A program made the position numbers and the translations under genes. A stretch of 64,000 nucleotides of DNA, from the NCBI GenBank assembly GCA_020351995.1, contig CP070674.1, positions 1,323,145-1,387,144 on the forward strand, given 5' to 3'. The notes below the pieces were generated by a model. That model saw only the letters and a list, made by a program, of their open reading frames with translations. It searched no databases and had not been told where the DNA came from. This DNA comes from Candidatus Zixiibacteriota bacterium. Lineage in GTDB: Bacteria > Zixibacteria > MSB-5A5 > GN15 > FEB-12. Numbering within the stretch: position 1 is the stretch's first letter; every line of letters starts with the position of its first letter. Positions 54,653 through 64,000 of this stretch are shown here, piece after piece.

Positions 54653-55003
54653 CTACATCGTAAAGAACCTTTCCCCCCTGATGATCTTTTCCAGGATCCT
54701 TATTGTCTTCTCTACCGGCGAATGCATAATATCAGTCGTGTTGTAAGTCGAGCGGACGACCTCCCTGGGGGCCACAAAACTTGCTCTACCTCTTCCCCCC
54801 CGAGCCTTCTTCTTGTGAGTCAAATTATACTGCCGCTGGTACTCTTTGGCTTTCTCCTTATGCATTTGATAGTAGCGTCGTTGATACTCCCGGCGCGCCT
54901 CAGCGGTCGAGAGCTTGCCCGTCCTTTTCGTTTTTCTTCCTTCGGTTTGAGCTTGAGTGGTAGTGTCGGTTTTGGCTGGAGTACCTCTCCTGGTCCGAGC
55001 CAT
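54653..55003 (-). CDS. Small basic protein with tandem 15-residue repeat
   Basis: A 116-aa Arg/Lys-rich protein without cysteine. After a Thr-rich start there are two adjacent 15-residue repeats, REYQRRYYQMHKEKA and KEYQRQYNLTHKKKA, then an RGGRGRA patch and a mixed C-terminus. The YQRxY...HKxKA pattern occurs in many phage and bacterial DNA-associated proteins; I infer nucleic-acid binding. It has a consensus promoter, GAGGT ribosome site and strong terminator, so it is a separate gene. The ORF on the other strand across this region is not credible. Confidence 0.75.
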   Translation of the reverse strand: MARTRRGTPAKTDTTTQAQTEGRKTKRTGKLSTAEARREYQRRYYQMHKEKAKEYQRQYNLTHKKKARGGRGRASFVAPREVVRSTYNTTDIMHSPVEKTIRILEKIIRGERFFTM

Positions 55004-55426: not shown

Positions 55427-56248
55427 TCAGCTCGATTTAGCCTTTCCCCTGACGTGAATGATGATCTCTCGTGTCGCGTAACCAACCACCAGGAGTACCA
55501 TTAACCAGAAGAATAATTGGAACCAGGCGGTGTAGTTTTCATTGGGAGTGGTGCCGGATGCGTTGAAGGCCTCCGCACCCCATCCTCCCAGAAACTGCAT
55601 GCGATTGATAAAAAGCGAAATTCGAGCCATGACCGTAAATCCAAACGAGGCACCGAACCCAATCATCAGTGTCCATATGCCAAGTTTGGCGGTCGCTCCA
55701 AAAACTCCCGTGTGGGCCTTCGAGAAAAAGAAATAGATCAGAGCGGCGACGACACCTATCACAATCAGCAACTGCGAAAGACCAGAGGCGGTATCAAGGA
55801 AGAAGAATCGACCTTGACCCAGGAAGTTGGCCCAGTCGAGATCGGCCATGGTATCATACAACTGTTTGTTGACACGGTTGGACATCTCCAGCGGAACCGC
55901 TATACCGGCCGAGATACCGATATACAGCGCCATCGGCCAGCGCGAGATCCACTGGTAGTTCTTGGAGAATCGCGTCCACATCAGCACCCCGAGCAGAGCC
56001 GGTATGAGATACCATGGTTTCGAGGAATTCAGCCACAGCGTCCACCAGTCACCGTCATCGAGTCGCTGGAACCAGAGTTTGGGTACCAGTCCATTATGCC
56101 ATAGCAGAATGGCAAAGTATCCGGCGGCCACGCCGGTTACGATGTGCTCGGCAATCTTGTAAAATGGATTGTCCTTATATAGGAACGAGTATGTTGCCAG
56201 AGTCAAGAAGGCAGCAAATGTCGTCCATAGGAAAGTCGAAAAATCCAT
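55427..56248 (-). CDS. Cassette 1, protein A: polytopic membrane protein
   Basis: A 273-aa protein with about seven hydrophobic segments and the last gene of cassette 1. Shared with A2 and A3 are the N-terminal AAFLTL...SFLYKDNPFYKIAEH, the central ISRWPMALYIGISAG and the C-terminal YFFFSKAHTGVFG followed by GFGASFGFTVMARISL. It has a 40-residue C-terminal extension with an extra helix (LFFWLMVLLVVGYATREII) that A2 and A3 lack. The start is ATG 56248, 2 nt after gene B. No known family was recognised and the function is unknown. Confidence 0.85.
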   Translation of the reverse strand: MDFSTFLWTTFAAFLTLATYSFLYKDNPFYKIAEHIVTGVAAGYFAILLWHNGLVPKLWFQRLDDGDWWTLWLNSSKPWYLIPALLGVLMWTRFSKNYQWISRWPMALYIGISAGIAVPLEMSNRVNKQLYDTMADLDWANFLGQGRFFFLDTASGLSQLLIVIGVVAALIYFFFSKAHTGVFGATAKLGIWTLMIGFGASFGFTVMARISLFINRMQFLGGWGAEAFNASGTTPNENYTAWFQLFFWLMVLLVVGYATREIIIHVRGKAKSS

Positions 56249-56250
56249 GC

Positions 56251-57129
56251 TTACCTCCTCTCCTCTCTTCTGGCTCTATACCGGCTGACAAAATAGCCGA
56301 CATTACCGAGAATGATGAATAAGATGATTACCATATGGGCTGACCACTGCACACGCATACCGTCCTTTGCCAGCCCGGGGTTATCAGCCAATTGTTCATA
56401 TTGAGCCGCGCCCAGCATGCCACCCATAATGCCAAATATCTGACCCGATCCATAAAACGGGTAGTACTGGGCGGTGCTGACGCCCGTTACTCCAATGGCC
56501 AGGGGGAAGCCGTAGCGTCCCTGACCATAGGAAATCCAGTAGTCAGTCGAATTGGTGCCTGAAATATCAATGACGCAGGCGACATCATCGTAATTCTGGA
56601 TATTCCTCATCATCGGTAGCGAATCGAGTGGCGTACCGTAGTAGTCCAGGGGGAACGGCAGGCGGAAGTTCTGGCCCATGCTCAAGATGATTATGGCGGG
56701 GTAAGGTTTGTATCCGAGAAAACAGTAGTCAACACCGTTGACTATTTCCCGCGGCGGGTACACGACGCCGTTATATTCCTTTTCCACTTTCAGCGAATCG
56801 GAGATATCGCGAATAGCCTGATCGGCCATGCCGGGACTGTTCTGTGACAGCGCTGAAAAGATCAGCTTAATTTCCTTTCGCCAGCACTGTTCGACAATGG
56901 CGTAGGTCATCGGGTGAAGCTCCGCCAGAGAACCTGGGTCATAATCAATAGGGATCATAACCACTGAGCCGGCCGGCAGGGTATCAACGAAGTCGAATAT
57001 GGCCTCGACCTCGGGCTCAACCAGAACCGGAATCTCGAAGTCAAAAGCGTAAGTTAGCACGCAGACAACAATCAGGAAAAGGAACACCCAGCGCCGGTCA
57101 AGCCTCATCAGTTTTTCAAATATATCCAT
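56251..57129 (-). CDS. Cassette 1, protein B: membrane-anchored alpha/beta protein
   Basis: A 292-aa protein with an N-terminal helix (WVFLFLIVVCVLTYAF), a ~220-residue soluble alpha/beta domain and a C-terminal helix (VIILFIILGNVGYFVSRYRA). Conserved with B2 are GSVVMIPIDYDPGSLAELHPM, DYCFLGYKPYPA and QIFGIMGGMLGAAQYE. The soluble part would lie outside the cytoplasm if the terminal helix is followed by the Arg-rich cytoplasmic tail. It lies 11 nt after C1 and 2 nt before A1. Family unknown to me. Confidence 0.85.
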   Translation of the reverse strand: MDIFEKLMRLDRRWVFLFLIVVCVLTYAFDFEIPVLVEPEVEAIFDFVDTLPAGSVVMIPIDYDPGSLAELHPMTYAIVEQCWRKEIKLIFSALSQNSPGMADQAIRDISDSLKVEKEYNGVVYPPREIVNGVDYCFLGYKPYPAIIILSMGQNFRLPFPLDYYGTPLDSLPMMRNIQNYDDVACVIDISGTNSTDYWISYGQGRYGFPLAIGVTGVSTAQYYPFYGSGQIFGIMGGMLGAAQYEQLADNPGLAKDGMRVQWSAHMVIILFIILGNVGYFVSRYRARREERR

Positions 57130-57140
57130 AGTAGTGACCC

Positions 57141-57965
57141 TTATCCTTTCCCCATGTATCCGCGTTCGATACCCAGAATTACCTTCAGGGCGGTCGCGAC
57201 AATACCCAGACCAACTCCTATGATGATTGCCCTCTGGGCGGCCAGATTAGGAACATTCATAAGCCAGTTGGAGGTCTTCGACATGAAGGGTGCGATGTAT
57301 GGCGTGAGAGGACCGTAGAAGGGGTGGAATCTGAGCATAACGATCAACGCCGCCAGAAGCAACAGGGTCGCCATGACATTGCGGGCCCTGAACGCGCGGT
57401 AGGCTGCCGAGGCAATGAAGAAGGCCAGCAGCGAGAACATGGTGGCGAAGATTGGAATCAGAATGTGATCGAAAAAGGCCCGGAACATGGTGCTCTGAAG
57501 ACCTTGAGCTGTCTCGAAGTGAAAGCCCCAGGTATTGTCAAAAACTATAATCACAACGCAGGCTACCAGGAACACTCCGGCCAGGCCCAGAAACAATCCT
57601 CTGCCGCCTTTGTTTACAGAGGCCTGAATCATCAGGACCAGGACCAGATTAGCTGACACCAGGAACGGAAAAAACCATCCCCAGGCTTCACCGTTCTGAG
57701 TTGTAAAACCGAAAAACATCATGGTGAATAAGCCGCAGAGCGTAAGATAGTTGTAGCCCCAGGCAGGCTTGCGTGTCTTTATCTTCTCGACCGATACTCG
57801 ATACAGGGACCACAGTCCCAGTGCCATGGCGAAGATGCCAATGATTATGGTCCAGTCGAGAAGAAACTCGTAGACCCATTCGGAAGATTCATGAGGGACA
57901 AAATATTGGAAGATCATGAACAATCCGAACATTCCCACGAGAATAACAGGAATTTGTCTTTTCAT
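57141..57965 (-). CDS. Cassette 1, protein C: polytopic membrane protein
   Basis: A 274-aa protein with about seven hydrophobic segments. Conserved with C2 are LLAFFIASAAYRAFRARN-x3-TLLLLAAL and the C-terminal NLAAQRAIIIGVGLGIV...ILGIERGYMG. It is 48 residues longer than C2, mostly from extra helices in the middle (FLVSANLVLVLMIQA and GLAGVFLVACVVIIVF). The arginines of the YRAFRARN loop should be cytoplasmic. It lies 13 nt after D1. Unknown function. Confidence 0.85.
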   Translation of the reverse strand: MKRQIPVILVGMFGLFMIFQYFVPHESSEWVYEFLLDWTIIIGIFAMALGLWSLYRVSVEKIKTRKPAWGYNYLTLCGLFTMMFFGFTTQNGEAWGWFFPFLVSANLVLVLMIQASVNKGGRGLFLGLAGVFLVACVVIIVFDNTWGFHFETAQGLQSTMFRAFFDHILIPIFATMFSLLAFFIASAAYRAFRARNVMATLLLLAALIVMLRFHPFYGPLTPYIAPFMSKTSNWLMNVPNLAAQRAIIIGVGLGIVATALKVILGIERGYMGKG

Positions 57966-57978
57966 GCTACATGTCCTC

Positions 57979-59448
57979 CTAATCCACTACGCGGAAAAAA
58001 TCTACGATGTTATTAGCCCAGGCCCAGTCGTTGCCAACACCGAGGTTGGCAAGGATCAATCCCGCCAGGACCAGTATGATGACGGCCGCCTTGGCCCAAT
58101 CCTGAGCCTTAAGTGACCCCAGTAGAATCGGCTCACGTCCCAGATATGCCGAGGCCGCGTAAAGTTCCTCACCTATCAGAGTATAGTCACAGGCAACTAT
58201 GAAGAAAGGAATCTGGGCAATCTCGTCGGTCCCGGCTATTTGAATGGAGCCGGCCACGGCGCCCGTCTCGGCCAGCAGCAGCGATTCCGCAAAGAATTTG
58301 CCCATGTACACGTTGGTGGCGGGCAGCTCTCGTAGCATCAGGCCGTTTACAGCTGCGACGTAAGCGAACTGGAGACTGGTCACGAAAAAGACTATATCTT
58401 CTTTGTAATCATCGGGCCGACCAGCGTCATAGTAGGCGGTTTTCACGACCTCCTGTGCCACCGCCATCACGACCGACTCGTAAGCGGGAACCATCAGCTT
58501 GGTCTGGTACTCGGCAACCCGCTTGGCGACGCGACCCAGAATAGTGAATGAAGCAATGGTAGCTATCTGATCCGCTGTTCCCAAGCCCATCACGTATAGT
58601 ATGGGGCGTCCCATCTCCGTAGCCCGGCCGATAGCGTCGTCAACTGCTTCTATACCGGCCAGGGGACGAACATACAGATCGGCTCCGCGGCGCGCGTGGC
58701 TGACGAAGAAAATCGTCAGGAAACCAAAGATCATAACAAAAACGAAGACCGCCAGTCGCCCCAGATTGAACCACTGGCCGTAGCTTTGCACCGGACCGAA
58801 GATCTCCGAAGGTGTGCGGATATCGGGGTCGGCCGTAACCGCGTTCACCCGATAGTAAAAATCGCTGTAGTCGGGGAGGTAATCAGGCGAGTCCTTTTCC
58901 TTGGTACCTACGTCCTCGGCGGTGACCGACCCGGACGGCGCAACGGCCACCTGTTGCCAACTGCCGTTCTCCGGGTAAGCGGCATGGGCCGCGGGCAGGT
59001 CACGGATGGCCTGGCCTATTGTCCGCTCCAGCGTTTCTTTCTTCTGCTCAAGCTGGGCCATATCCAGTTTCGCAAAAACACTGTGGATGGAGTCAGTCCT
59101 GCTACCCGGCTCAGGTTCACTCCAGCTGCTGCTCGTCCGTAGTTTCAGGTAATCGAGGGTATCGCGAAAAGACGGGATAGCCGTCATGAGATCGGGTACC
59201 CACCTGAAGACCTCGTACATCGCCACCGACTGCTTCCCTGCTCCGTCATCCACAGAAATTTCCCACTCCAGCGTAATGGCATGGCCGTGGTCGTTCTCGG
59301 TATCAAAGGCAACCAGATTGGTCACCGGCGCCGGTAACAAGGTGGAATCGAAAAGCAGGGTATCTTCCGGTGGGGAAGTACCTTCTTGAGCGGAAGCGAC
59401 ACTGAAGCAGGACAGCAGCAAGCACAATACGAGAAGTTTAAGCTTCAT
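57979..59448 (-). CDS. Cassette 1, protein D: FN3-like plus DUF6754-like protein
   Basis: A 489-aa protein. A signal peptide (MKLKLLVLCLLLSCFSVASA) precedes an FN3-like region to about 230 (PAPVTNLVAFDTENDHGHA ... YYRVNAVTADPD), then a helix (LAVFVFVMIFGFLTIFFV). A conserved cytoplasmic domain of ~200 residues follows and a C-terminal helix ends it. Motifs shared with D2: GIEAVDDAIGRATEMGRPIL, LLAETGAVAGSIQIAGT, QIPFFIVACDYTLIGEELYA, GSLKAQD. I believe this is Pfam DUF6754, from memory. It has more inserted residues before the helix than D2. Confidence 0.85.
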   Translation of the reverse strand: MKLKLLVLCLLLSCFSVASAQEGTSPPEDTLLFDSTLLPAPVTNLVAFDTENDHGHAITLEWEISVDDGAGKQSVAMYEVFRWVPDLMTAIPSFRDTLDYLKLRTSSSWSEPEPGSRTDSIHSVFAKLDMAQLEQKKETLERTIGQAIRDLPAAHAAYPENGSWQQVAVAPSGSVTAEDVGTKEKDSPDYLPDYSDFYYRVNAVTADPDIRTPSEIFGPVQSYGQWFNLGRLAVFVFVMIFGFLTIFFVSHARRGADLYVRPLAGIEAVDDAIGRATEMGRPILYVMGLGTADQIATIASFTILGRVAKRVAEYQTKLMVPAYESVVMAVAQEVVKTAYYDAGRPDDYKEDIVFFVTSLQFAYVAAVNGLMLRELPATNVYMGKFFAESLLLAETGAVAGSIQIAGTDEIAQIPFFIVACDYTLIGEELYAASAYLGREPILLGSLKAQDWAKAAVIILVLAGLILANLGVGNDWAWANNIVDFFRVVD

Positions 59449-59483
59449 GGGATGCTCCCTGATATTAAGGGATATTCTTAAGT

Positions 59484-60296
59484 TTATATTAATTCCAACC
59501 AGTCTCTAAAGAGGAATGTGATTCGCCCGACCAGCAACGATATACGACCCATGACAGTGTAACCGAAGGAAGCCCCGAAGGTTATCATAAGTATCCAGAT
59601 GCCGACTCGAGAACCGGCGCCGAATACCCCTTTGTGCTCCCTGGAGAAGTAGAAATATATCAGGCCGCAGAACACACCAAGGAAGATTACCCAGTTGCTC
59701 ACCATCATTACCAGTTGACCGGTCGCCGACAGGTCGAGATTCGAGAAGAAGGCACCGATTCCCTCCCAATCTCTACCTAATAGCGGTACGAAAGTAGAAG
59801 ATATCTGCTTGATGAAATCAGAGCGTAAATAACGAATGAAGTTCAGTCCGGCCGTCGTACCTACGATAAATGCCAGGGGCCAGCGGGAGATCCAGCCAAT
59901 CTTGCGCGACAGGCGCAAGAGCAGCAGGATACCAAGAATAACCGGTGTGTAAAAGAAGAAGTTGAGACCTTCGGCCCGCTGAGGCACCTCGAAGAAATCG
60001 GCCAGGCTGGTGGAAAGCCTGGGAACGAGGTTCTGCACGATAGTGGTCCAGAATCCCATACACATCCAGAAGGCCGCCGAGACTCCGACAAACAGGTGCT
60101 CGGCAAATTTGTAGTAAGGGTTATCCTGATAAAGGAAAGACATCACCGCCAGAGTGAGAAAAGCCGCGAAGGTAACCAGGAAACCGCGGATGATATAATG
60201 GTCGTGTTCTCCCTGAAAGGCACCGGCTTTAAGTATCCAGCTGGCCAGGAACAGGACGATCACCGCCGCCATAACTATGATGGTAACTTTCCTCAC
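59484..60296 (-). CDS. Cassette 2, protein A
   Basis: A 270-aa paralogue of A1 and A3. It adds an N-terminal helix (VTIIVMAAVIVLFLASWIL) before the family start AAFLTLAVMSFLYQDNPYYK. The ISRWPLAFIVGTTAGLNFIR and YFSREHKGVFGAGSRVGIW motifs are intact and MITFGASFGYTVMGRISLLVG follows. The start is GTG 60296, overlapping the B2 stop by GTGA. It is 35 nt before D1, the only spacing between the two cassettes. Confidence 0.85.
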   Translation of the reverse strand: MRKVTIIVMAAVIVLFLASWILKAGAFQGEHDHYIIRGFLVTFAAFLTLAVMSFLYQDNPYYKFAEHLFVGVSAAFWMCMGFWTTIVQNLVPRLSTSLADFFEVPQRAEGLNFFFYTPVILGILLLLRLSRKIGWISRWPLAFIVGTTAGLNFIRYLRSDFIKQISSTFVPLLGRDWEGIGAFFSNLDLSATGQLVMMVSNWVIFLGVFCGLIYFYFSREHKGVFGAGSRVGIWILMITFGASFGYTVMGRISLLVGRITFLFRDWLELI

Positions 60297-61288
60297 TGAC
60301 CCTTCTCCTTACGGCGTCCTCTGAAGTAGATAATGTTTCCAATAACGATAAAGGATATTATCACAATATGCGCCAGTGTCTGAGGACCCATCATCTTCAG
60401 TCCCGGTGTATCCATGTCCTTTAAATCAGGGTAAGTCTCTTTCAAGGAAAATTCGTATTCGGCGGCGCCTTTGACGCCACCGAGAATGCCGACCAGCTGT
60501 GCCGGGTAGTAGGGATAAAGCTGTGGCGCGACCACTGCCGCTACACCAGCGGCCACATCAACGCCCCCCGGGTCGCCGACGAACAGCACCCATTCCTTTG
60601 AACCGGGCAAGCCACCACCAAATGAAACGATGAAGTCAAGATCCCGGCAGGAGCGGATATCGTCGAAAATCTCAATTTCGCCCAATGGGACACTGTTAAC
60701 ATCAGTCGGAAACATCTTTTCGAAATTGCTGACGATCACATTCAGAACGCCTTCATTGCCGGCTTTGTAGCCAATATTCACGTAATCGATGCCATCCTGC
60801 TTTTCGGGGAACTCGGGAAGAATCGTGTTGGTCAACGATTGCGTCAAAAGGGCTTGACCGGTAGCCCACAGCGACATGAAGATGACTTTGTGTCCTTTCT
60901 TGAGGCAGTGGCGACTGATGGCGTTGGCCATCGGTTGTACCTCTGGTGCCATAGCCGGATCGAAATCGAAGGACAACAACACCGTTGAACCGGGCGGAAG
61001 ACTTTCAACTCTATCAAACACGGCTTTAACTACCGCGGTGGGTTTCTCGGAGAAGGTTATCGGGAATAACAGCGGCGCAGCTACAGCCACAAAGATGAAC
61101 AGGAAGATGATTCGCCGGTCGACTTCCTTAGCAAAGATAGAGCGCAGCAGCAAAGCCACCAGCCCACCAAATATAAGCAGGAGTGAATAAAGCTGTCCCA
61201 ATCGCTCCAACGGGAAGATCAGCGCGATCGCGATAATGATAACTATAGCGACAGCAGCAAGCAGTAAAGTAAGGTTGACTTTACCCAC
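60293..61288 (-). CDS. Cassette 2, protein B
   Basis: A 331-aa paralogue of B1, about 40 residues longer, with extra N-terminal helices (LTLLLAAVAIVIIIAIALIF, LYSLLLIFGGLVALLL, IIFLFIFVAVAAPLLF). The domain shows GSTVLLSFDFDPAMAPEVQPM, KKGHKVIFMSLWATG, DYVNIGYKAG and QLVGILGGVKGAAEYE, then a C-terminal helix ending in a basic tail. The start is GTG 61288, inside the last codons of C2 (8-nt overlap). Confidence 0.85.
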   Translation of the reverse strand: MGKVNLTLLLAAVAIVIIIAIALIFPLERLGQLYSLLLIFGGLVALLLRSIFAKEVDRRIIFLFIFVAVAAPLLFPITFSEKPTAVVKAVFDRVESLPPGSTVLLSFDFDPAMAPEVQPMANAISRHCLKKGHKVIFMSLWATGQALLTQSLTNTILPEFPEKQDGIDYVNIGYKAGNEGVLNVIVSNFEKMFPTDVNSVPLGEIEIFDDIRSCRDLDFIVSFGGGLPGSKEWVLFVGDPGGVDVAAGVAAVVAPQLYPYYPAQLVGILGGVKGAAEYEFSLKETYPDLKDMDTPGLKMMGPQTLAHIVIISFIVIGNIIYFRGRRKEKGQ

Positions 61289-61961
61289 GATCTTCTCCCA
61301 GATAACTGCGTTCTATCCCCAGTATTAATCGCAACGACATAGACACTACGCCCAGGCCGATACCGATGATAATCGCGCGCTGTCCCGCCAGGTTGGGTGA
61401 GTTCATAATCCAGACGGCCAGATTCGGTATTTGCGCAATCGACCACGATTCCGGAACCCAGGCTGTCAGCATAACTCCGAAGGGAGTACGCCCCAAAAGG
61501 ATTATGAACGCCGCCAACAGCAACAGAGTGGCCTCACGGTTCTTAGCGCGAAAGGCGCGGTAAGAAGCTGATGCGACGAAGAACGCCAGAAGGGCGTACA
61601 TGGTCGACTGAAGCGGATTGATTACATAATTGAAGGTCTCCTGGAACCAGGAACCCTCGGCCGTCGGATCTGCTCCGATTCCACCGGGGTTGCCGATCTT
61701 CAAAAGGCCTATCACCAGCATGAAGAAAAACCCAAACAGAGTCACAATGGAGAAGCCCCAGTCCTTTCTCTTGCGCCAGAGCTTATTGAAATGAATTCGA
61801 ACGAGGTTGCCTCCGCCAAGAAAGAAAGCGAATACAGCAATGATGTCAAAGAAGAGAGTGAAATCTTCACCCAGGTTTTCCAGGGGCGGGAGGAATACGG
61901 AGACTATTAGAACCGTTCCAACTACAGCCAGTATGGTTAAAGGTATCGCCCGTCTCATCAC
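61281..61961 (-). CDS. Cassette 2, protein C
   Basis: A 226-aa paralogue of C1: six or so helices, LLAFFVASASYRAFRAKN-x3-TLLLLAAF, and the C-terminal NLAGQRAIIIGIGLGVV...LILGIERSYLG. It lacks the extra middle helices of C1. The first codons read GTG-ATG (61961 and 61958), so Met may be one codon later. It lies 4 nt after D2 and overlaps B2 by 8 nt, so C2-B2-A2 are translationally linked. Confidence 0.85.
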   Translation of the reverse strand: MMRRAIPLTILAVVGTVLIVSVFLPPLENLGEDFTLFFDIIAVFAFFLGGGNLVRIHFNKLWRKRKDWGFSIVTLFGFFFMLVIGLLKIGNPGGIGADPTAEGSWFQETFNYVINPLQSTMYALLAFFVASASYRAFRAKNREATLLLLAAFIILLGRTPFGVMLTAWVPESWSIAQIPNLAVWIMNSPNLAGQRAIIIGIGLGVVSMSLRLILGIERSYLGEDRG

Positions 61962-61965
61962 TCAA

Positions 61966-63186
61966 TCATCTTGCCGAAAATACGTCCGACAGATACTCCA
62001 CAATATCATTGAAGAACTCTATATCCCATGCTAAACCAACGGTGGCCGAAAAAACACCCACCAGAATGGCCAGCATGGCGATAGCCTTGCCCACATCCTG
62101 CCCTTTCAGTGACCCCAACTGCATTGGTTCACCGGAAAGGTAAGCCGACGCAGCGAAAAGCTCTTCCCCTATCAGCGTAAAATCACAGGCGGCGATAAAG
62201 AACGGCAACTGGGCCGGGCGAGCTGTTCCCGCGATCTGTATCGCACCGATACTGTTGCCCGTTTCAGCCAAGATCAGCGACTCGGCAAAGAATGCGCCGA
62301 GCAGAAACACCGTCGCCGGTTTCTCACGAACCATAACGCCATCGACCGCGGCCACGTAACCGAACTGCTCATCGGTATAATACGTCACCATGTCATCGTT
62401 GTATTTATCCGGTCTTCCCGCTGCCGTGTAGGCGGCCTTTACCGTCTCGCGCCCGGCTGTCATCACCAGGGAACGTGAGGTTGGCATAAAAATCCTTGTA
62501 TCGTAATCGGCAATCACTCTGGCTACCCGGCCAAGAATGGTTAACCCGGCCAGTGTTTGCACGTCATCCATATCGCGGATGCCGGGGATAAACAAGATGG
62601 GGCGTCCCATTTCGGTAGCCCGTCCTACGGCGTCATCCACTGCTTCAAGACCGGCTATCTTCCTCACGAAGAGCTTGGTGCCCCTCTTGGCGGCGTTGAT
62701 GAACAACAGCACTGAACCACCCACAATTAAGGCTATAAGGAACAGCCAGCCACGATGGAGGTTGAGCCACTCGACTTCGGGTGCGATTGGCGCGGTACGA
62801 TTGGATTCAGCCGCATAGTTTTCTGAGAGTGCCGCGATGAAATAGCTGTAGGTGGAGTCACTATATACGCCGTCATCGGTAAAGGCATTTGTGCCGGGGG
62901 GGAACTCCTCGACGAGAACAGGCTCCCCTCCATTCGCGCTACGATAAAGCTTATAACCTATGACCGTGCCATCCAGGAGTTGATCGTCGATGGATGGTAC
63001 CCAGCTAAGGTCGATATGGTCGCCCTTATCGTACTTGTGGTCCTCGGCAATAAGTGAAGTCACCGGCGCCACAACGACCAGCTCGGAATCAGGTACTATA
63101 ATAGCGGGGTCTGTATCGGATGGTTCGTCTTGTGCTGAAATGGAAATCGATAGAAGCAGGACAAATAGGAAGACTGATAATTTCAT
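61966..63186 (-). CDS. Cassette 2, protein D
   Basis: A 406-aa paralogue of D1: a signal peptide (MKLSVFLFVLLLSISISAQ) followed by an FN3-like domain of about 100 residues (PVTSLIAEDHKYDKGDHIDL ... YSYFIAALSENYA), one helix (WLFLIALIVGGSVLLFINA), the DUF6754-like domain (GLEAVDDAVGRATEMGRPIL, LILAETGNSIGAIQIAGT, QLPFFIAACDFTLIGEELFA, GSLKGQD) and a final helix. The FN3 region is clearer than in D1. It follows A3 by 45 nt. Confidence 0.85.
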   Translation of the reverse strand: MKLSVFLFVLLLSISISAQDEPSDTDPAIIVPDSELVVVAPVTSLIAEDHKYDKGDHIDLSWVPSIDDQLLDGTVIGYKLYRSANGGEPVLVEEFPPGTNAFTDDGVYSDSTYSYFIAALSENYAAESNRTAPIAPEVEWLNLHRGWLFLIALIVGGSVLLFINAAKRGTKLFVRKIAGLEAVDDAVGRATEMGRPILFIPGIRDMDDVQTLAGLTILGRVARVIADYDTRIFMPTSRSLVMTAGRETVKAAYTAAGRPDKYNDDMVTYYTDEQFGYVAAVDGVMVREKPATVFLLGAFFAESLILAETGNSIGAIQIAGTARPAQLPFFIAACDFTLIGEELFAASAYLSGEPMQLGSLKGQDVGKAIAMLAILVGVFSATVGLAWDIEFFNDIVEYLSDVFSAR

Positions 63187-63231
63187 CTATATGACTTCAA
63201 CGGCCGTAGTCGCCTTAAGCCGAATAATAAT

Positions 63232-63942
63232 CTATTTAATCATTCCCAACCAGTCACCCAGCAGATAGTCAATACGCCCGATCAGAAGAGACATACGACT
63301 CATAACCGTGTACCCGAACGAGGCACCGAAGGTGATCATCAGGAAGAGAATTCCGATCTTTGCGGTCGTACCAAAAGCCCCCGTGTGAGCCTTGGAGAAG
63401 AAGAAGTAAACCAGACCGCTGAAAGTACCAACGAATATGACTATCGTTCCGATAATGGCTCCCAGACTGCTGTCAAAACCGGAACCGAAGGTCGACGAGA
63501 AAAGCGGCACCATGGTTGCCTGGACCTGCACCATTACGTTTGAAGCAACGTAGTTGATGAGCCATAGTCCGGCGGTGGCACCGACAATAAAAGCCAGAGG
63601 CCAGCGAGACAGCCATCCAATCTTTGGAATCAGCCGCAGCAGCATCAGGAAGCCCAGAATGGCGCCGACCCAGAGCATAAGGTCAATGCCGCTGGATGAA
63701 GGCACCTCACCACCAGACAATTTAGCACCGATCCACCCGAAGGTGTAATCGCCAGCGCCAACCCAGAATTTGCCGTAGAAATTGTCCCAGAAGAGCACTA
63801 CAAACCAGTATCCAGCGGAGATGCCGACAAAAATAGCCTCGGAGAGTTTGTACCACGGGTTATCTTTATAGAGAAAAGAGAAGATTCCCAGTGTCAGGAA
63901 GGCGGCTAACCAGAGCCTGAAATGTTCAAATAAGACTTCCAT
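63232..63942 (-). CDS. Cassette 3, protein A
   Basis: A 236-aa paralogue of A1 and A2: AAFLTLGIFSFLYKDNPWYK, LSRWPLAFIVGATAGLWLIN, YFFFSKAHTGAFGTTAKIGI and MITFGASFGYTVMSRMSLLIG. It is the shortest of the three, without the N-terminal helix of A2 or the C-terminal tail of A1. GAGGAG lies 6 nt before ATG 63942. It is the last gene of a third cassette whose D and C genes are outside the window. Confidence 0.85.
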   Translation of the reverse strand: MEVLFEHFRLWLAAFLTLGIFSFLYKDNPWYKLSEAIFVGISAGYWFVVLFWDNFYGKFWVGAGDYTFGWIGAKLSGGEVPSSSGIDLMLWVGAILGFLMLLRLIPKIGWLSRWPLAFIVGATAGLWLINYVASNVMVQVQATMVPLFSSTFGSGFDSSLGAIIGTIVIFVGTFSGLVYFFFSKAHTGAFGTTAKIGILFLMITFGASFGYTVMSRMSLLIGRIDYLLGDWLGMIK

Positions 63943-63955
63943 ATTCTCCTCTAAC

Positions 63956-64000
63956 TCACTCGCCTTTCAGCGCTGACTTACGACCCGACATAATGAATGC
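63956..64000 (-). CDS. Cassette 3, protein B, C-terminal end
   Basis: The 14 codons visible before the right edge (AFIMSGRKSALKGE, stop TGA at 63956) sit immediately upstream of A3 (13-nt gap). They resemble the basic C-terminal tail after the last helix of B1 and B2 (YFVSRYRARREERR, YFRGRRKEKGQ). The call rests on position and this tail. Confidence 0.55.
   Translation of the reverse strand, partial: AFIMSGRKSALKGE

What the first reader, a model, noticed from the sequence alone, without database searches (positions are those of the whole stretch)
55427..64000. Tandem array of a four-gene membrane system (D-C-B-A) of unknown function
Seen: at least three successive copies of a four-gene set, all membrane or exported, with signature motifs kept in each type (D: GxEAVDDAxGRATEMGRPIL and QxPFFIxACDxTLIGEEL; C: QRAIIIGxGLG...ILGIER; B: DxDPxxxxExxPM; A: SRWPxAxxxG and GASFGxTVMxR). 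No ATPase, sensor or enzyme accompanies them. Strict order and overlaps imply one complex per cassette, and repetition suggests specialised versions. The only recognisable parts are FN3-like domains and a DUF6754-like domain.
Basis: partly seen in the sequence, partly recalled or inferred. Interest (0 to 1): 0.9.

Follow-up and report, generated by a model that had tools for sequence, protein, structure and literature searches.

The report
Unknown eight-family bacterial membrane machine
A block of four membrane-protein genes, repeated three times here and five times in the genome, is the duplicated core of a larger and apparently undescribed machine of eight protein families, including a predicted actin-fold ATPase, found throughout this uncultured bacterial phylum and in about a quarter of sampled bacteria from other groups, but in none of the 14 control genomes.

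Summary
Two complete D-C-B-A cassettes and the A gene of a third lie at window 55427-63942. The array runs past the window; a 100-N scaffold break hides its first cassette, whose two contig ends share 140 identical bases. The genome has five cassettes; a close relative has the intact three-cassette array. D is DUF6754 (PF20539) with an FN3 ectodomain; A, B and C match no family. DUF6754 is in 132/132 genomes of the window's phylum (relatives are Zixibacteria) and 66/254 others; 35 of 40 outside loci keep D-C-B-A. The four proteins co-evolve cassette by cassette, and array positions 1-3 are three ancient clades.

They sit beside DCBA in many genomes as H-G-E-F-D-C-B-A, are mostly single copy, and share its phyletic distribution. 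B and D models show the same element order but probably lie on opposite membrane faces.

Best reading: an undescribed envelope machine with one shared cytoplasmic ATPase/adaptor module and several specialised membrane cores. Its substrate is unknown. No paper found mentions DUF6754.

The parts
63956..64000 (-). 3' end of B1 (rest at L001:2101-3111, outside the window)
   Evidence: ORF 336 aa in L001; window coordinate = L001 coordinate + 61855
63232..63942 (-). A1: 236 aa, six core membrane helices; last gene of cassette 1
   Evidence: orthologue in L009 cassette 1
61966..63186 (-). D2: 406 aa; signal peptide, FN3 ectodomain, TM helix, DUF6754 domain, C-terminal TM helix
   Evidence: PF20539 5.9e-122; FN3; AF2 pLDDT 92.1
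62014..62778 (-). DUF6754 domain of D2 (residues 137-391), predicted cytoplasmic
   Evidence: positive charges directly after the TM helix
61281..61961 (-). C2: 226 aa, six membrane helices, predicted N-in
   Evidence: no Pfam family
60293..61288 (-). B2: 331 aa; TM helices, Rossmann-like domain predicted extracytoplasmic, C-terminal TM helix
   Evidence: AF2 pLDDT 92.8, pTM 0.87; no Pfam family; no close PDB fold
59484..60296 (-). A2: 270 aa, six core membrane helices (plus one N-terminal extra), predicted N-out core
57979..59448 (-). D3: 489 aa; longer ectodomain, DUF6754 at residues 224-471
   Evidence: PF20539 3.4e-115
58036..58779 (-). DUF6754 domain of D3
57141..57965 (-). C3: 274 aa membrane protein
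   Evidence: cassette-3 clade
56251..57129 (-). B3: 292 aa
   Evidence: cassette-3 clade
55427..56248 (-). A3: 273 aa membrane protein; last gene of the array
   Evidence: cassette-3 clade

Best explanation
The array is the amplified membrane core of one multi-protein envelope machine made of eight families, H-G-E-F-(D-C-B-A)n. Each D-C-B-A cassette makes one inner-membrane complex. A and C (six helices each) form the membrane core. B holds a Rossmann-like domain on the extracytoplasmic side. D holds a Rossmann-like DUF6754 domain of the same element order on the cytoplasmic side, plus, in most copies, an FN3-type ectodomain for a specific partner. One shared cytoplasmic module, E (an actin-fold ATPase of the MutL/GlmL kind) with adaptor F (barrel-sandwich and KOW domains), works on the cytoplasmic face of all cassettes in the cell; G and H are small accessory proteins. 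The cassettes are old specialised paralogues for different clients. Most likely action: ATP-driven or ATP-gated transfer or assembly of an envelope component. Shown here: the gene set, its order, cassette-wise co-evolution, ancient paralogy, single-copy E/F, phyletic linkage, ATPase motifs and the B and D folds. Inferred: physical assembly, sidedness, and the transport or assembly function.
For: Gene order D-C-B-A with median gaps of 0-11 bases in 95 of 109 D loci, 35 of 40 loci outside the phylum. Cassette-specific co-evolution and three ancient cassette clades. E and/or F next to DCBA in 16 of 40 outside loci, with G in 12 and H in 5 of the loci held. Phyletic linkage over 254 outside genomes: D 66, B 66 (64 shared), F 62 (61 shared), G 64 (61 shared), Fisher p 1e-48 to 1e-55. 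E: strong matches in 38 of 43 D+ genomes sampled; among D- genomes only one, weak and at GlmL level. H: 31 of 43 against 1 weak in 33. F is single copy in almost every genome while cassettes number 1-7. E has invariant ASKHA segments (DIGGATTD; DCGSTTTK nearly so). B and D models are confident with the same element order; the B-D profile alignment scores higher than 299 of 300 permuted controls.
Against: No complex could be predicted and no interaction is known. Transport is inferred only from anatomy: A and C have few conserved charged residues inside the membrane and match no transporter family. E's ATPase activity is untested. Some D+ genomes lack detectable F or G (5 of 66 each), so these may be dispensable or diverged. 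Genomes are related, so the p-values overstate independence. The opposite sidedness of B and D rests on the positive-inside rule, and the B-D sequence homology is only suggestive (whole-profile comparison not significant).
Confidence: 0.5

Rival explanations
1. A sensor/receptor complex: D's FN3 ectodomain binds an extracellular or envelope ligand, A-C pass the signal, and DUF6754 passes it to E-F as a regulatory ATPase switch.
For: Ectodomain length varies widely (D 258-975 aa) and is absent in free-standing cassettes; paralogues diverge by cassette.
Against: No kinase, regulator or second-messenger domain travels with it consistently in the neighbourhoods read; the conserved core is the cytoplasmic domain, and several cassettes lack any ectodomain.
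Confidence: 0.2
2. A redox or ion-pumping complex of the Rnf/Nqr kind: an inverted pair of six-helix proteins (A, C) with a barrel-sandwich soluble subunit (F).
For: F N-domain weakly matches RnfC_N (11 of 16 members, best 2e-5) and NQRA_N (4 of 16); A and C are predicted six-helix proteins of opposite orientation, as RnfA/RnfE are (my knowledge).
Against: A and C have no conserved cysteine column and no Rnf-Nqr Pfam match; no flavin or Fe-S subunit in the cluster; E is an ASKHA protein, not a redox subunit; A-C homology not supported (33 of 300 controls).
Confidence: 0.07
3. An accessory system of a B12-dependent mutase: E is a GlmL-type reactivase and DCBA are its membrane anchor.
For: E matches MutL PF13941 over its full length (4e-127).
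Against: E scores below NCBI cut-offs for GlmL (229.5 against 475) and for glmL_fam (168.9 against 204); no mutase subunit was seen in the neighbourhoods read; E keeps about 120 extra C-terminal residues.
Confidence: 0.05
4. D-C-B-A is a self-sufficient four-protein complex, and E, F, G, H are neighbours only.
For: Free-standing cassettes (L011, L012) have no E/F beside them; DCBA is often separate from E-F.
Against: F, G and B follow D's phyletic distribution almost perfectly, and E and H largely so in samples, even where unlinked, as H-G are in this genome.
Confidence: 0.12

Closest known systems
DUF6754 (Pfam PF20539)
   Same: All D proteins are full, high-scoring members (1e-96 to 1e-124 in this genome).
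   Different: Pfam gives only a domain of unknown function; the partners, array and operon were not found described anywhere searched.
MutL/GlmL family (PF13941; methylaspartate mutase accessory protein GlmL)
   Same: E matches PF13941 end to end and keeps both ASKHA phosphate motifs.
   Different: Below the GlmL and glmL_fam cut-offs, about 120 residues longer, 48-70% identical to the first sequence across phyla, tied to DCBA rather than to a mutase.
Rnf / Na+-NQR complexes
   Same: A soluble subunit with a barrel-sandwich domain; two six-helix membrane subunits of predicted opposite orientation.
   Different: No Rnf-Nqr family match in A or C, no conserved cysteines, no flavin or Fe-S proteins.
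FESNov-type novel gene families of uncultured bacteria (PMC10849945)
   Same: A phylum-wide unknown family set with conserved context, as that survey looks for.
   Different: Not restricted to one clade; the main text does not mention Zixibacteria; its supplements were not searchable.

Membership tests
DUF6754 (PF20539) | Match over the curated cut-off (27 bits) across the domain | tested here: met
   384-406 bits in D2 and D3; 5 of 5 in the genome
MutL/GlmL (PF13941) | Match to PF13941 over the cut-off | tested here: met
   E: 425 bits, residues 14-491
GlmL equivalog (NF040745) / glmL_fam (TIGR01319) | Score over the curated cut-off | tested here: not met
   229.5 of 475; 168.9 of 204
GlmL system | Gene next to a B12-dependent mutase | tested here: inconclusive
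   None seen in the outside neighbourhoods read by eye; not searched systematically
ASKHA (actin/Hsp70/sugar kinase) ATPases | Phosphate-1 and phosphate-2 motifs | tested here: met
   DCGSTTTK nearly invariant, DIGGATTD invariant in 11 E sequences
Rnf/Nqr | Rnf-Nqr family match in six-helix subunits | tested here: not met
   No hit for A or C
Rnf/Nqr | Conserved membrane cysteines for the [2Fe-2S] site | tested here: not met
   No cysteine column of 30% or more in A or C
Rnf/Nqr | RnfC/NqrA barrel-sandwich subunit | tested here: inconclusive
   F: weak matches, 11 of 16 members RnfC_N, best 2e-5
ABC/ECF transporters | Walker-type ATPase subunit in the unit | tested here: not met
   None among A-H by Pfam; a separate ABC gene pair lies near one outside locus only
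Single multi-subunit complex | Physical interface of A, B, C, D | not testable with these tools
   Only single-chain prediction was available

The most novel reading that the evidence does not exclude
H-G-E-F-(D-C-B-A)n is a previously unrecognised class of bacterial envelope machine in which two probably homologous Rossmann-like subunits (B, D) sit on opposite faces of the membrane on a core of two six-helix proteins, driven by one shared actin-fold ATPase and duplicated into client-specific versions.
Probability: 0.5. Interest if true: 0.92.

Novelty: categorically new. Interest (0 to 1): 0.82.

Why it matters
A set of eight protein families present throughout one phylum and in about a quarter of sampled genomes from other bacterial groups, highly conserved in sequence (E 48-70% and F 37-69% identity to the first sequence across phyla), is absent from the 14 control genomes and has no known function. 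Such conservation implies a basic cell-envelope process of under-studied diderm bacteria. Defining the parts list and the shared ATPase/adaptor turns a DUF into a testable machine, and the five cassettes per genome give a natural series of specificities to compare.

Tried and rejected
1. Homology of A with C by profile comparison: not above permuted controls (33 of 300); dropped. 2. Homology of B with D by sequence: colinear over 194 columns and reached by 1 of 300 controls, but the whole-profile comparison is not significant; kept as suggestive together with the identical order of predicted elements. 3. First profile comparison used global mode by mistake and was redone. 4. PDB fold search: D matched only through FN3, B gave TM-scores of at most about 0.3 (0.4 by target length); no functional lead. 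5. A plasmid-borne origin: no DUF6754 in plasmids; E's plasmid hits are distant MutL/GlmL-family proteins, most annotated as GlmL or glutamate mutase L. 6. Diderm-only trait: Omp85 is present in nearly all D+ and D- genomes sampled, so it does not discriminate. 7. A truncated first cassette as real biology: rejected, the 100-N run is a scaffold break with a 140-base end overlap. 8. Literature: no paper with DUF6754, no GlmL operon paper, others off topic.
Full report
WHAT IS THERE. The window is G000:C1:1323145-1387144. On the minus strand, window 63942 down to 55427, lie A1, then D2-C2-B2-A2, then D3-C3-B3-A3. Pfam recognises only D, as DUF6754 (PF20539), at 3e-115 and 6e-122; A, B and C have no family in Pfam or NCBIfam. 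The FN3 part of D is confirmed by a profile match to titin FN3 domains, 3e-25.

HOW FAR THE ARRAY GOES. To the right of the window come B1 and the last 128 residues or so of C1, then exactly 100 Ns. DUF6754 occurs five times in the genome. One of the others (L010) is D1 followed by the start of C1 and again a 100-N run; beside D1, divergently, is a MutL-family gene. The contig end in C1 at L001 and the contig end at L010 share 140 identical bases and join into one C1 reading frame. The array therefore has three whole cassettes and the scaffold order is wrong at this point. A relative, CP070777 ('Candidatus Zixiibacteriota'), shows the intact array D1C1B1A1-D2C2B2A2-D3C3B3A3 with the same flanks. 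Two more D-C-B-A cassettes stand alone at L011:6894-9933 and L012:8670-11537; their D proteins lack the ectodomain.

DISTRIBUTION. DUF6754 is in 132 of 132 genomes of the window's phylum, typically five copies, in 66 of 254 sampled genomes of other phyla, and in none of 14 named control genomes. Neighbourhoods were read in 20 in-phylum and 40 outside stretches. Of 109 D genes, 95 are followed by C-B-A in order, with median gaps of 11, 0 and 1 bases; many of the exceptions end at contig or stretch ends. In 35 of the 40 outside loci at least one complete D-C-B-A is present.

ONE COMPLEX PER CASSETTE. If A, B, C, D of a cassette form one complex they should evolve together more than with paralogues of the same locus. 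Pairwise distance matrices correlate at 0.72-0.85; exchanging paralogues within a locus lowers this to means of 0.34-0.46 and never above 0.62 in 300 trials. In a tree of concatenated cassettes, array positions 1, 2 and 3 form three separate clades across the phylum (support 0.99-1.0) with relatives from other phyla between them, and one genome of another phylum (L083) also has a three-cassette array. The cassettes are thus ancient, separately maintained versions.

FOUR MORE PARTNERS. Next to D in many genomes are E and F. E (617 aa here) matches MutL PF13941 at 4e-127, below the cut-offs for GlmL proper, with the ASKHA phosphate motifs DCGSTTTK (nearly invariant) and DIGGATTD (invariant) and 48-70% identity to the first sequence across phyla. 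F (376 aa) has no family over cut-off in the window's genome; of 16 members, 11 weakly match RnfC_N, 12 Biotin_lipoyl, and 3 KOW. Upstream of E in several phyla lie G (about 80-170 aa, motif PAIxxLExxKPLNFIGSQ) and H (about 140-170 aa, two predicted TM helices by eye and the motif LSPFxxxSRLxxFRG); neither has a Pfam family. The full order H-G-E-F-D-C-B-A is seen in L069, L094 and L098. In the window's genome E and F lie beside D1 (L010) and H-G form an overlapping pair elsewhere (L103:7361-8319).

PHYLETIC LINKAGE. Over the same 254 outside genomes: B 66, of which 64 with D; F 62, 61 with D; G 64, 61 with D (two of the three without D do have B). Fisher p-values are 1e-48 to 1e-55; these ignore relatedness and are only a guide. 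E has strong matches in 38 of 43 D+ genomes sampled, and among D- genomes in only one, at the weak level of GlmL proper. H is in 31 of 43 D+ genomes and, weakly, in 1 of 33 D- (a notebook entry says 32, the recount is 31). F is single copy in almost every genome while cassettes vary from one to seven: one E-F module appears to serve several membrane cores. A and C were followed by neighbourhood only.

STRUCTURE. AlphaFold2 models are confident: B2 pLDDT 92.8, pTM 0.87; D2 pLDDT 92.1. After the first TM helix both show the same order of elements, helix then six strand-helix pairs, ending in a long TM helix. A profile alignment of the two domains runs colinearly over 194 columns and is reached by 1 of 300 permuted controls, but an unrestricted comparison is not significant, so homology is suggestive. 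B has no close fold in the PDB; D is matched only through FN3. By the positive-inside rule D's domain is cytoplasmic and B's is extracytoplasmic, C is six-helix N-in, A is six-helix N-out (the last is the weakest call). Invariant or nearly invariant residues include, in D, R287, E302, E308, Q317, Q326, D335, E341-E342, D364, K367, and in B D108, E116, Q264, and H307 and N318 inside the C-terminal TM helix, suggesting a functional site rather than a mere scaffold.

MECHANISM. The best-supported reading is an envelope machine with a membrane core (A, C), two Rossmann-like caps on opposite faces (B outside, D inside), an optional ectodomain for client choice (D), and one shared cytoplasmic ATPase/adaptor module (E, F), with G and H as accessories. 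The step from this anatomy to ATP-driven or ATP-gated transfer or assembly of envelope components is inference. Sensor, Rnf-like and B12-mutase-linked readings are less supported (see rivals).

KNOWN OR NEW. DUF6754 is a catalogued domain and E's family is known, but no paper in the library mentions DUF6754 and no search found a description of the cluster. Subscription journals and preprints were not searchable, so earlier description cannot be excluded. As a system it matches none of the kinds tested.

LIMITS. No complex prediction, no structure superposition of B and D, unnamed outside genomes, and the relatedness of genomes not modelled in the phyletic test.

Noticed in passing
L001:3498-3597 and L010:7763-7862 (G000:C1:1388497-1388596 and 803762-803861): Scaffold breaks of exactly 100 N; the two contig ends share 140 identical bases, so the published single-contig chromosome is mis-ordered here.
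   Followed up: yes
L001:3481-3837: Across the gap the scaffold creates a false junction with a fragment whose N-terminus looks RmuC-like (by eye).
   Followed up: no
L010:11849-12628: A 259-aa secreted, membrane-anchored protein of no family sits between E and F in this genome and in L009.
   Followed up: partly
L010:14282-17469: By eye a TolQ-TolR-TolA-TolB-like cluster follows F; TolQ/TolR-like genes are also near F in L009.
   Followed up: no
L096:1263-3968: Three successive B genes after an A gene in another phylum, so B can be amplified on its own.
   Followed up: no
G223 and G361 (outside genomes): Have weak B (6e-29, 1e-27) and G (6e-7, 3e-8) matches but no detectable D, E or F; possibly a divergent or partial version of the system.
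   Followed up: partly
L071, L084, L086, L102 D genes: D proteins of 909-975 aa carry ectodomains of about 650 residues with hardly any recognised Pfam domain.
   Followed up: partly
window 54653-55003 (-): A 116-aa basic protein just downstream of the array is strongly conserved in L009 in the same place, next to the pyruvate phosphate dikinase gene.
   Followed up: no
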